Of a stretch of 64,000 nt of DNA, positions 45,237 to 51,693 are shown piece after piece (within the stretch, counting starts at the first letter, position 1; every line of letters starts with the position of its first letter). Both the position numbers and the translations under genes were made by a program. The DNA lies in contig NZ_CP058552.1 of NCBI RefSeq assembly GCF_013401555.1, positions 4,898,001 to 4,962,000 on the forward strand. Direction: 5' to 3'. Source of the stretch: Paenibacillus sp. E222. Its GTDB lineage: Bacteria > Bacillota > Bacilli > Paenibacillales > Paenibacillaceae. The notes beneath the pieces were generated by a model that searched no databases, was not told the origin of the DNA, and worked only from the letters and a program-made list of their open reading frames with translations.

Positions 45237-48200
45237 ATGAAGCAGTGCTGCAAAATTATAAAATGGATGGTTATTCGTGTGTTAGTAGTAAGTCTCTGTT
45301 TATTTATAACTACCGTTCCAAGCAGGGTATCCGCTGATGATTCGGTTATCCATACCCAGCCTGCAATCTTGGAGACGATAAGCCAAGAGGGATTCGTTCA
45401 TCCTTCTATAGGTTTCACTGGTGATGCACTGAAGCTGATGCAGGAGAAGGTTGCCATTGGCGCAGAGCCGTGGGCGAGTGCATTCGAGGACTTCAGGAAC
45501 AGTCGCAGTGGATCACTGGATTATGATATTCGGAATCAAAGCAAGCTGGATAAAACGAAACCCGCATATACCAAGATTGACAATGATGCAAAAGCCAAGG
45601 AAGCCAAGGTGGATGCAGAAGCGGCATTTACCCACGCAGTTATATGGGCTGCTACAGGTGATGTTCGTTACCGTGAGAAAGCAATGACCATTGTTCGTCT
45701 TTGGTCCCAAATTGATCCGGGCAATCCAAAAGGATTTACAGATTCGCACATTAGTATCGGTGATGCCATGGTTAACATGGTTAGAGCTGCCGAATTGTTG
45801 CGGTATACGGAGGGCAGCGGGGAATGGGCGTGGACGGAAACGGATACGACGAATTTTACGCAGAACTATCTGATGGCCTTCTACGATGGCAACTTCTATC
45901 ATAACAATGGTCGCTGGATGAACCAGCATGGTATTATCACTCAGGCCTATATGATGGCTGCTATTTTCTCGGATAATCAGCAATGGTACCAAGAGGCTGT
46001 GGAGTGGGCAACAGCCAATAAAACGGCAACGTTCAAAGGGCAATCCGGTGATATTTTCCATCAGATTCGCTATGTCACACAAAATGAAAGAACGGGTGCA
46101 CCTGTCGAGCCCCATGTACAACTTGTGGAAATGTTCCGCGATATGGGCCACGCTTCAGGAAATACGTCCACATTATCCATGATTGCCTACATGACTGAAA
46201 TCCAGGGTACGAAGGTCAACCCGGACCCGGCTTCACCAACATTCGGAGAAGTGACGGAGGCTTCAGATGGTGTAGGAATGTTCGAATTCCTCGACAATCG
46301 GATATTGGCTGGAGCCAATGAGCTTGCCAAATATAATCTGGGTTACGATATCTTGTATACACCAGTTAATATTAGCAATGCTGTGGTTGGTGATCCAACA
46401 GGCAATTACGCTGATACCGTCAGTGATAACGGCAGAGGATTGGGGTACGCGTCTGAAGTCACATACGGATACTACATGCATCATTTGACTCAGCCACTGG
46501 ATCCTGATGATGAAAGGATTAAATATCTGGCACAAGCTATCGAAAAGCAAGGTGGATTGAAAGCGATCCCATCTTATGTTCTGTTACAGGGGACCAATGA
46601 CTTGGCGACAGGTGAGGTGGTTGGTCCACCAAAGCCACTAAGCAATCCGCCGTATATGGAAGTGACAGCAGCATATGACCGCTTGCAGGCGTTCGATTAT
46701 GTGGGTAGGAGTGAAACCACCAGCACGAGTACGTTTCAGGATATGGACGGTATGCGTTCCGTACTGTATGACGTTCGCTATGAGAATCAGTACACATGGT
46801 ATGACCTAGATCTAGACGACAGTTACAACGAGATTACGATTCGGGCTGCAAGTAATTCGAATGTGGGCACTAAAGTGGATGTAATCTTGTTGGATGGTGT
46901 GGGCGGACTTGATCGCACCAATGTTACGACAGCTGATCTTGCCAAAGGTGAAGTACTAACTACCTTGCAGGTACCGAACACCGGATGGTGGACCAATTAT
47001 GCGACGGTCTCAAGCAAGCTAAGTAAGCCTTTGTCAGGTAAGCATCTGATCGCATTCAAGTATTATGGCAGCGCAAACGCATTGTCATATCAGATTGCGT
47101 TCGACTGGTTCGCATTCTCAGATGGCTATGCAGGCGATGAACATACAGCTCTGTCAGGTGTCCTCTCCGGAGAAGCTACTAAAGCTTCAGACGGTGTGAA
47201 TCTGAGTGAAGGAGGGGCAATCACATTCGGCAAAATGAATTTTGATAGTGGTAACAATAGTATTGAATTACAGGCCAAAACAACAGATGCGACTGGCAAA
47301 CTGCTGTTATACAGCGGGGAAAAACTGGTAGCAACCTACAAAATGCCAAATACGAGCAATGCTATGGTCAAATTCACCTCTGAAGTTGCATCAGCAGACT
47401 TGGCTAAGATCAAGGGCATTCATGATATCACTCTAAGGTATAAAGGCAGCTCACCAATTACACTTAAGACATACCGGAATATTGAACGGAATCGTTTGGC
47501 GAACGTAGAAACAATTGGCAGTCAAGCCAACTTCATTGCCGATCAGGCTATTCCGATTTCCGGTACATTTGAGACAGGCAAAGAAGGCACCCGCTCTTAT
47601 ATTCTGACAAAGAACGAAAGCCTTGTTTATTTGAGCAAGGCCGCACTTCAAGTGGATCGTACCAAGGACAGCATTGTTTCCTTTACGGTCAGAACTAATG
47701 GAGCGGCCAAATTGCAGCTGCAAAGAGATTCATCCACTCCCCCTTTTGCTACGATCCGAGTGCCGGATACTAAAGGCGAGTGGCTTCGGGTGAGTACTAA
47801 CATATCAGATAAATATGTAAAATCGGATGACTACCCAACCTATTTGAAAAGTCTTTTCCTTTCCATCATGACGGATAATGAAGACACAGAAGTCATGCTG
47901 GGCAGCTACACACTTGATCCAGCCGATACCTCGCCAGTAATCAAGTTGACAAGTGAACAAGGGTTTGAACTTACAAGCGTAGCGGCCTACGAGAATGGCG
48001 AAGATATGAATTTGAAGGTATCCATTGAAGATCTAGACTCTGTGAATGTATCTTTATCGACGGATAATCAGGATTATATTGACAGTAGTGGACTGAATGG
48101 AAAGGCAGGCGGGACGTTAATTGTTAAACCAGTCGGACTTGCGCCAGGTGAATATGTCTTCCATATCTATGCGCAGGATGATACATCCAATTACGTCGAT

Positions 48201-50655: not shown

Positions 50656-51693
50656 TTGAGATCGAAGACCAAGTTGAAGCAAATAGAAATAAGGAAGGTG
50701 TGGACAAGTTTCTTGGTGCTACTGATGATCTGTACAACGAGTGTGAATGCAGCCACAACAGAGCAGTTAGCGCGTCCAAGCTTTGAGTTAAAACTGAATT
50801 CTATTAATAACAATCTCGTTGAAGTTTCGGTCATCGGACATGACCTTGAGGATCTGTATGCCTATGAAATGAATCTGGAATTTGATGCAAATAGGCTTAA
50901 TTTTTCCAAAGCAAGCGCAGGAACTGTTGGATATACGGTCGTGCCGAAAGCGGAGGGGAATTATCTCAAGATTGCCCATACCAAAGTGGGCAGCGTGAAA
51001 GGTGATAGTGGGGATCAACTATTGACGACCCTGCAATTTAGTGTGCAACGTGCTGGTAACAGCACGATTACACTTCAGAATATCAAGCTGGTGGACTCAA
51101 AGCTAAATATGTCTAGCATGACACCTGCACTGCAGGAGACCATACATGCGGAATCAGGGATCAGCTTCAGTGACATAACGGGGCATTGGGCAGAGGCTTC
51201 CATTTTAAAGGCGGTTGATGCCGGATTTATTGACGGGTATACGGACGGCACGTTCCGTCCTAAGCATGAGGTCACTCGCGCCGAGTTTGCTGTTATGTTT
51301 AGCAGAGCACTTAAACTTGATGTGAATGAATCAGATGCAACTTTCGCCGATGCGAACCAGATCCCGGCTTGGGCTTCCTCCCACGTGCAAGCAGCAGTGA
51401 AGAAGCGACTTATTACCGGTTATGCCGACCACACCTTCCGACCAAACGCGAAGATGAGTCGTGCCGAGATGGCATCGGTTGCTGTTCGCGCACTCGGCAA
51501 GACACAACATGATGTGACTTACGTGAATGAATTTACTGATGCAGCCGATATTTCTTCTTGGGCGAAACCTTTCATTCATGAGGCTGTAGAATCAAGCATT
51601 ATGCAGGGGATAGGGAACAATCGTTTCTCGCCAAACACGAATGTGACCCGCGCAGAGGCAGTTACCGTGATCTTAAATGTGTTAAGGAATTGA
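50656..51693 (+). CDS. cohesin-SLH cell-surface anchor protein
   Basis: A 345-residue exported protein. Signal peptide about 1-33 (ends SVNAA); cohesin-like domain about 40-160 with the typical strand LYAYEMNLEFDANRLNF and LLTTLQFSVQRAGNSTITL; then three SLH domains (about 169-212, 229-274 and 291-345), each with the FRPN/TRAE type signature (GTFRPKHEVTRAEF, HTFRPNAKMSRAEM, NRFSPNTNVTRAEA). This is the plan of cellulosome anchor proteins such as C. thermocellum OlpA: SLH grips the wall and the cohesin captures a dockerin. TTG 50656 is 6 bases from GGGAGGG. The obvious partner is the dockerin-like tail of the upstream lyase. Confidence 0.8.
   Translation: MRSKTKLKQIEIRKVWTSFLVLLMICTTSVNAATTEQLARPSFELKLNSINNNLVEVSVIGHDLEDLYAYEMNLEFDANRLNFSKASAGTVGYTVVPKAEGNYLKIAHTKVGSVKGDSGDQLLTTLQFSVQRAGNSTITLQNIKLVDSKLNMSSMTPALQETIHAESGISFSDITGHWAEASILKAVDAGFIDGYTDGTFRPKHEVTRAEFAVMFSRALKLDVNESDATFADANQIPAWASSHVQAAVKKRLITGYADHTFRPNAKMSRAEMASVAVRALGKTQHDVTYVNEFTDAADISSWAKPFIHEAVESSIMQGIGNNRFSPNTNVTRAEAVTVILNVLRN

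What the first reader, a model, noticed from the sequence alone, without database searches (positions are those of the whole stretch)
45237..51693. Lyase with cohesin-FIVAR-dockerin-like tail next to a cohesin-SLH anchor: a mini surface complex
The 1783-residue lyase ends in a cohesin-like domain, three FIVAR repeats and a dockerin-like module, and the very next gene encodes a cohesin-like domain with three SLH domains. Cohesin-dockerin pairing and SLH anchoring are established for cellulosomes, and FIVAR-linked cohesin/dockerin pairs are known for C. perfringens glycosidases. Having both a cohesin and a dockerin on one lyase, plus a dedicated anchor, suggests head-to-tail chains of lyase ending on the cell wall. 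I know of no such uronate-lyase complex in Paenibacillus. The dockerin calcium loops are degenerate, so binding may be calcium-independent or lost.
Basis: partly seen in the sequence, partly recalled or inferred. Interest (0 to 1): 0.85.

Follow-up and report, generated by a model that had tools for sequence, protein, structure and literature searches.

The report
Calcium-less docking tag with wall anchor
A soil bacterium's large polysaccharide-cutting enzyme ends in a plug-like docking module that has lost most of its calcium-binding residues, and the next gene makes a matching socket fixed to the cell wall; related bacteria carry the same enzyme-plus-anchor pair on many different enzymes, so it looks like a real, little-noticed way of displaying enzymes on the cell surface.

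Summary
The 1783-residue lyase ends in a cohesin, three FIVAR repeats and a dockerin-like module; the next gene encodes a cohesin plus three SLH domains. Pfam scores the dockerin only at E 0.05, but it belongs to a conserved family (Doc*) that has mostly lost three of four calcium ligands of loop 1 and one or more of loop 2, so this is not decay of one gene. All 62 Doc* ORFs found by a peptide motif carry the cohesin-FIVAR-Doc* tail, on varied enzymes, in Paenibacillus and Cohnella. In 48 of 62 a gene of the cohesin-SLH family is adjacent, and 60 of 60 Doc* genomes have one. The anchor's lineage follows its neighbour's dockerin class. AlphaFold on an in-frame Doc*-anchor pair gave pTM 0.75, suggesting docking (no PAE or coordinates seen). 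Best reading: Doc* plugs the enzyme into the wall-bound cohesin, probably without calcium. Chaining through the tail cohesin and self-docking remain open; a mirror-tree test found no specific Doc*-anchor coevolution. A 2024 survey already described cohesin-dockerin enzymes plus SLH anchors in one Paenibacillus; new here are the calcium-poor class, the gene pairing and its spread. New variant of a known kind.

The parts
45237..50588 (+). Secreted 1783-aa enzyme: signal peptide (by eye), alginate-lyase-type catalytic part (about residues 40-480), CBM6, fn3, F5/8C, Ig (He_PIG), then the surface-docking tail
46686..47120 (+). CBM6 (residues 484-628)
   Evidence: 64.6 bits for the protein
49248..49676 (+). 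Tail cohesin (residues 1338-1480)
49680..50387 (+). Three FIVAR repeats (residues 1482-1555, 1561-1635, 1643-1717)
50388..50579 (+). Doc*: calcium-poor dockerin-like module (residues 1718-1781)
50589..50635 (+). Intergenic stem-loop between enzyme stop and anchor start (-28.3 kcal/mol for the 67-base gap, z -3.2)
   Evidence: 25 of 30 relatives' gaps of 40-300 bases have z < -2; no control gaps were folded; not called a terminator
50656..51693 (+). 345-aa anchor: signal peptide (by eye), one cohesin, three SLH domains
50752..51138 (+). Anchor cohesin (about residues 33-161)
   Evidence: Pfam Cohesin 23.2 bits, cut-off 24.1; the A5 profile's nearest PDB sequence is the NagJ cohesin, E 1.4e-4
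51163..51684 (+). Three SLH domains (about residues 170-343)
   Evidence: 149 bits
51849..53822 (+). Second alginate-lyase-type enzyme (657 aa); no cohesin, FIVAR or dockerin reported by Pfam; pathway neighbour
54980..56170 (+). GH88-type protein (unsaturated-uronyl hydrolase family); fits use of a uronate polymer by the locus
   Evidence: 30.3 bits, cut-off 26.6
56395..59869 (+). Probable sugar ABC transporter: two permeases and a solute-binding protein (named by eye from the sequences, not searched)

Best explanation
The two genes are a matched pair for surface display. The enzyme's C-terminal Doc* is a dockerin that probably no longer uses calcium. It docks into the single cohesin of the neighbouring gene's product, whose three SLH domains hold it on the cell wall. 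The enzyme is thus displayed at the surface, near the importer and the uronyl hydrolase that would use its products. The FIVAR repeats act as a spacer. The tail cohesin is a second socket that may take up another dockerin protein, or Doc* of a second enzyme. Shown here: domain content, conserved loss of several calcium ligands, gene pairing, co-occurrence, class-matched anchor lineages. Predicted only: Doc*-anchor docking. Inferred: calcium independence, wall attachment, role of the tail cohesin, the substrate.
For: Doc* is one conserved family (34 sequences that I picked; mean column identity 65%). Among 99 distinct Doc* sequences a D, N, S, T or E stands at loop 1 position 1 in 0, position 3 in 21, position 5 in 23, and at loop 2 position 3 in 6; in 44 calcium-type relatives each of the eight ligand positions has 43 or 44 of 44. 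In 53 loci found by a Doc* peptide motif there are 62 Doc* ORFs in 52 loci; 43 of 62 have a gene of the cohesin-SLH family (cohesin profile over 70 bits) directly downstream, median gap 70 bp, and 5 more directly upstream; random expectation per slot is about 0.0005. Genome level: 60 of 60 Doc* genomes have a strong cohesin-SLH match, against 62 of 334 others (Fisher p 7e-37). Of 20 anchors that I chose from genomes without Doc*, 14 lie directly next to a calcium-type dockerin gene, 1 neighbour is masked, 5 have none. On a tree of 63 anchor cohesins the neighbour's dockerin class changes 4 times; 200 shuffles give a mean of 17 and a minimum of 11. AlphaFold of the L015 orthologous Doc* plus anchor cohesin, in one natural reading frame: pTM 0.75, both domains pLDDT above 90 over most of their length; crude bookkeeping expects about 0.45 if undocked and 0.61 if docked.
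Against: A mirror-tree test on 37 pairs found no Doc*-anchor cohesin signal beyond shared history (partial r -0.03, p 0.71), while Doc* correlated with its own tail cohesin (0.20, p 0.004) and FIVAR (0.23, p 0.002), and the tail cohesin with the anchor cohesin (0.41, p 0.002); six partial correlations were tested, uncorrected. 14 of 62 Doc* ORFs have no adjacent anchor. 62 genomes have the anchor without Doc*. In L059 the neighbour has the cohesin but no SLH hit, and in L016, L063 and L064 the anchor is split over ORFs. Doc* keeps an aspartate at loop 1 position 12 (95 of 99) and at loop 2 position 1 (95 of 99), and a polar or acidic residue at loop 2 positions 5 (74 of 99) and 12 (53 of 99), so weak calcium binding in loop 2 is not excluded. 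No PAE or coordinates were returned, and the linker and signal peptide in the predicted chain raise local concentration. The tail alone also gave a high pTM (0.71). The cohesin profile was built from Doc*-adjacent anchors, and neither the Fisher p nor the label changes correct for shared ancestry of linked genes.
Confidence: 0.7

Rival explanations
1. Head-to-tail polymer: Doc* of one enzyme binds the tail cohesin of the next, so enzymes form chains, capped at the wall by the anchor cohesin.
For: All 62 Doc* ORFs of the motif-found loci have their own cohesin. Doc* distances correlate with tail-cohesin distances after control (0.20, p 0.004) and the two cohesins with each other (0.41), as expected if both take the same plug. 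22 of 82 genomes with only weaker (calcium-type) dockerin matches lack a strong anchor match, leaving tail cohesins among the possible sockets; Pfam cohesins are found in all 22.
Against: No direct evidence of contact between chains. Correlation within one polypeptide is expected from linkage. Of the 22 genomes, 11 still show weaker matches to the anchor profile, and their other cohesin proteins were not classified.
Confidence: 0.3
2. Cis clamp: Doc* folds back on the tail cohesin of its own chain, closing the tail; the anchor cohesin then competes for it or binds something else.
For: AlphaFold of the tail alone gives pTM 0.71 although two linkers have stretches with pLDDT under 50; that seems high for freely hinged rods (my estimate, not computed in a call).
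Against: FIVAR number varies from 1 to 4, which would make one closed geometry hard to keep. The conserved neighbouring anchor is then unexplained.
Confidence: 0.2
3. Doc* is a non-binding relic or a mere C-terminal cap, and the enzyme is retained on the cell by something else (for example CBM6 or F5/8C sugar binding).
For: Most calcium ligands of loop 1 and a key one of loop 2 are gone; the window's module does not pass Pfam Dockerin_1.
Against: A relic would not keep 65% mean column identity with ten invariant columns over 34 proteins with differing catalytic parts, nor stay next to an anchor gene in 48 of 62 cases.
Confidence: 0.1

Closest known systems
Clostridium perfringens cohesin (X82) / FIVAR-dockerin pairing of modular glycosidases (NagJ, NagH; PDB 2ozn, 2jnk, 2vo8, 2jh2, 2w1n)
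   Different: No SLH anchor is part of that described system and its dockerin binds calcium (both recalled, not looked up). Here most ligands are lost and a wall anchor is the next gene.
Cohesin-dockerin enzymes with SLH-anchoring scaffoldins in Paenibacillus guangzhouensis (survey PMC11557425; passages read)
   Same: 28 proteins with one cohesin-dockerin pair, many with a GH, and five SLH anchors to which they could dock. Same concept, same genus name as many loci here.
   Different: Domains found by InterProScan, so presumably calcium-type dockerins. The words FIVAR and calcium do not occur in its main text. The passages read give no gene pairing and no other Paenibacillus.
Single-cohesin SLH anchor proteins of cellulosome clostridia (OlpA type)
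   Same: One cohesin plus SLH domains that can hold an enzyme on the wall (recalled; the OlpA cohesin-dockerin complex 3ul4 is among the fold matches).
   Different: Those dockerins use calcium and the hosts have multi-cohesin scaffoldins (recalled); here a monovalent anchor is paired gene by gene with an enzyme that also carries a cohesin.
Ruminococcus type III dockerins
   Same: Also depart from the canonical calcium loops: they lack the second one (PMC12484212, passages read).
   Different: They stay calcium-responsive according to that review; in Doc* it is loop 1 that is most altered, with loop 2 partly altered too.

Membership tests
Cohesin (tail, residues 1338-1480) | Pfam PF00963 above cut-off and cohesin jelly-roll fold | tested here: met
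Cohesin (anchor) | Pfam PF00963 above cut-off | tested here: inconclusive
   Window domain 23.2 bits against 24.1; 22 of 22 alignment members match at E <= 0.1, best 1.2e-9
Cohesin (anchor) | Cohesin fold | tested here: met
Type I dockerin | Pfam PF00404 above cut-off | tested here: not met
   14.2 bits against 22.9; not reported in the full protein
Type I dockerin | Two calcium-binding loops with D/N-type ligands at 1, 3, 5, 12 | tested here: not met
   loop 1 positions 1, 3, 5 mostly lost and loop 2 position 3 lost in 93 of 99; loop 1 position 12 and loop 2 position 1 kept
Type I dockerin | Binds a cohesin | not testable with these tools
   Docked prediction only, judged from pTM; needs a binding assay
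FIVAR | Pfam PF07554 above cut-off | tested here: met
   47.2 bits, cut-off 29.2, 3 stretches
SLH anchor protein | Three SLH domains | tested here: met
   149 bits, 3 stretches
SLH anchor protein | Signal peptide | not tested
   Seen by eye in the translation only
Cellulosome | Multi-cohesin scaffoldin carrying several dockerin enzymes | tested here: not met
   The anchor has one cohesin; the genome's five cohesin places include one two-cohesin protein elsewhere
Alginate-lyase superfamily PF05426 | Above Pfam cut-off for the 1783-aa protein | tested here: not met
   14.2 bits against 22.2; related at one remove through the neighbour gene

The most novel reading that the evidence does not exclude
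Paenibacillaceae run a calcium-independent cohesin-dockerin system of their own: a portable cohesin-FIVAR-Doc* cassette placed on many extracellular enzymes, most with their own cohesin-SLH anchor gene, in which Doc* plugs into the wall anchor and the spare tail cohesin lets further enzymes be added, so that short enzyme chains grow from the wall without scaffoldin or calcium.
Probability: 0.25. Interest if true: 0.8.

Novelty: new variant of a known kind. Interest (0 to 1): 0.62.

Why it matters
Dockerins are described as calcium-binding modules. A conserved class that has lost most ligands of one loop and part of the other, yet keeps an apparent partner, would test what calcium does in cohesin-dockerin binding, and might offer a binding pair that works in calcium-poor or chelating conditions. 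It also extends cohesin-dockerin surface display from the cellulosomes of anaerobes to a large group of Paenibacillaceae. Profile-based surveys can miss it: the window's own Doc* falls below Pfam's Dockerin_1 cut-off, and 14 of 34 relatives tested give no Dockerin_1 match even at E <= 1.

Tried and rejected
Decay of one gene: rejected, since the same ligand losses are shared by 99 distinct sequences. My early note that loop 1 is shortened was wrong; it has the same 12-residue length (corrected).

A uronate-lyase-specific complex: rejected; Doc* tails sit on GH3, arabinogalactanase, GH78, PL8 and other catalytic parts (precomputed Pfam lists and source names).

Mirror-tree as proof of Doc*-anchor specificity: did not support it. 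The tail model: pTM 0.71 does not decide between docking in cis and none. A hunt for the catalytic domain in solved structures gave nothing relevant. Foldseek rows for the tail beyond the cohesins and 2ozn_B are mostly antibody chains and were ignored. The structural second look lists no match for the Doc* portion itself; that absence is not evidence. A PDB sequence search with the Doc* profile gave weak hits only: a dockerin (2y3n_B, E 0.015) and EF-hand proteins.

Spread outside the family: in a phylum sample of 299 genomes only the window's own had a strong Doc* match; one other was weak (37 bits). How many of the 299 are of the same family is not shown in full.

Limits of the counts: lists were capped, so genome counts rest on the per-genome best E-values. 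I set Doc* at E < 1e-21 and anchors at E < 1e-20; one borderline Doc* genome (G338, 79.6 bits) was counted as Doc* and one (G328, 73.3 bits) was not, and neither was read. The calcium-type class was assigned by score; only the sequences were read. No control gaps were folded for the stem-loop claim.

Literature: searches (open-licence PMC only). No listed paper names a calcium-less dockerin class in Paenibacillus in what I saw: listings, plus passages of PMC11557425, PMC6823336, PMC6794216, PMC5132251 and PMC12484212. No paper was read whole. Subscription literature was not searchable.

Full report
What is there. The ORF 45237-50588 encodes 1783 residues and the next, 50656-51693, 345 residues, on the same strand with 67 bases between. 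Pfam finds in the first CBM6, fn3, F5/8 type C, He_PIG, Cohesin (41.6 bits, cut-off 24.1) and three FIVAR stretches, and in the second three SLH stretches and a Cohesin match just under cut-off (23.2 bits for the excised domain). No dockerin is reported in the full lyase at E <= 1; the excised module gives Dockerin_1 at E 0.05, and 20 of 34 alignment members match that model at E <= 1. The catalytic part is alginate-lyase-like only at one remove. Around it lie a second alginate-lyase-type enzyme, an AraC regulator and a GH88-type protein, and what look by eye like transporter genes: an ordinary polysaccharide-use locus. In Paenibacillus sp. LS1 (L014) the nine proteins compared are all found, catalytic part 91% identical, anchor 81%, GH88 96%; in P. 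phyllosphaerae (L015, 20 kb held) the lyase catalytic part, anchor and GH88 protein are found at 73, 48 and 73%.

The dockerin-like module is a family, not a relic. A search with the tail region returned 88 proteins. The C-terminal ~62 residues of 34 that I picked align with 65% mean column identity and ten invariant columns. Across 99 distinct sequences, loop 1 position 1 is hydrophobic in all 99, positions 3 and 5 keep a D, N, S, T or E in 21 and 23, and loop 2 position 3 in 6. Kept are loop 1 position 12 (99 of 99 by that rule), loop 2 position 1 (96), and in part loop 2 positions 5 (74) and 12 (53). 44 calcium-type relatives keep 43 or 44 of 44 at each of the eight positions. I call the module Doc*.

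The tail is a fixed cassette. Scanning genome contigs with one Doc* peptide motif gave 53 loci, all titled Paenibacillus or Cohnella. They hold 62 Doc* ORFs (over 75 bits) in 52 loci; the 53rd has only a 61-bit module. All 62 have a tail cohesin and one to four FIVAR matches before Doc*; two cohesin hits are partial where the ORF runs off its contig (which pools them with 57 protein hits that overlap them and were found with the tail itself). The catalytic parts differ.

The anchor is the neighbour. In 43 of the 62 a gene of the cohesin-SLH family starts directly downstream (median gap 70 bp) and in 5 more it lies directly upstream; in 14 it is not adjacent, some of these being in tandem Doc* arrays. 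The criterion was the cohesin profile over 70 bits; in L059 no SLH was found and in L016, L063 and L064 the anchor is split over ORFs. Over 394 family genomes, 60 of 60 with Doc* (E < 1e-21) have a cohesin-SLH match at E < 1e-20, against 62 of 334 without (Fisher p 7e-37, uncorrected for ancestry, with a profile built from Doc*-adjacent anchors). Of those 62, 60 have weaker dockerin matches. Of 20 stretches taken around weaker-group dockerins, 5 also show the anchor within the stretch. Of 20 anchors that I chose from genomes without Doc*, 9 directly follow and 5 directly precede a calcium-type dockerin gene, 1 has a masked neighbour and 5 have none. On a tree of 63 anchor cohesins (43 next to Doc*, 20 next to calcium-type) the class changes 4 times, against 17 on average and at least 11 for 200 shuffles of the labels. 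So the anchor lineage follows the dockerin class of its neighbour; shared inheritance of linked genes would contribute to this.

Evidence against. Mirror-tree on 37 pairs shows no specific Doc*-anchor signal (partial r -0.03) but does show Doc*-tail cohesin (0.20), Doc*-FIVAR (0.23), FIVAR-anchor cohesin (0.24) and tail-anchor cohesin (0.41) signals. Linkage in one chain explains some of these; the last would fit two sockets for one plug, but is not proof. Doc* is so conserved that the test may have little power within the class; the class-level switch is the better sign.

How it most likely works. The enzyme is secreted; Doc* enters the anchor cohesin; SLH domains hold the anchor to the wall; products are released near the importer. 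Calcium is probably not needed. The tail cohesin is a second socket. A stem-loop in the gap between the two genes (z -3.2 here; z below -2 in 25 of 30 relatives with gaps of 40-300 bases, mononucleotide shuffles, no control gaps) may set the enzyme to anchor ratio; the terminator scan did not call it and its role is inferred.

Prior work. A 2024 survey (PMC11557425; passages read) reports for P. guangzhouensis 28 proteins with a cohesin-dockerin pair, many on glycosidases, and five SLH anchors they could dock to. So the idea of such a surface in Paenibacillus is in print. The S1 protein of the P. curdlanolyticus multienzyme complex was reported to lack cohesin and dockerin modules (PMC6823336, passages). 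I saw no report of the calcium-less class, the gene pairing or the spread in the listings of nine searches (see Tried and rejected). Type III dockerins that lack one calcium loop remain calcium-responsive (PMC12484212, passages).

Verdict. Real, recurrent and probably functional; a new variant of cohesin-dockerin surface display, with the calcium-poor dockerin as its point of interest.

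Noticed in passing
L009:6595-10500 (own genome 2970594-2974499): A second pair in the same genome: a protein (beta-propeller-like by eye) with a calcium-type dockerin match of 48.7 bits, followed by an 801-aa protein with two cohesin matches and SLH-like domains by eye.
   Followed up: partly
L010:6270-11939 (own genome 3274269-3279938): A subtilase-like protein (by eye) of 1889 aa carrying a weak cohesin match, two overlapping dockerin matches and SLH-like domains by eye: enzyme and anchor in cis.
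   Followed up: partly
window 50589-50635 and gaps in L014-L065: A strong stem-loop of differing sequence lies between the enzyme and anchor genes in 25 of 30 relatives with gaps of 40-300 bases; possibly a processing or attenuating element. No control gaps were folded.
   Followed up: partly
L016:10276-11266, L063:10223-11324, L064:10186-11454, L059:10256-10804: The anchor gene is split into two or three ORFs in the first three loci, and in L059 only the cohesin part was found: sequencing error or a broken anchor.
   Followed up: no
L117, L118, L119, L120, L127: Cohesin-SLH genes of the same family without a detected dockerin neighbour; the first four share a similar 198-aa (thioredoxin-like by eye) gene next to the anchor.
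   Followed up: partly
P0191: A relative of the anchor (43% identity over 87%) comes from Candidatus Reconcilbacillus cellulovorans, whose secreted cellulase complex is described as lacking cohesin and dockerin (PMC6794216, passages).
   Followed up: no
window 41262-42128 (-): 288-aa ORF that looks like a transposase of the IS110 type (from recall, not searched).
   Followed up: no
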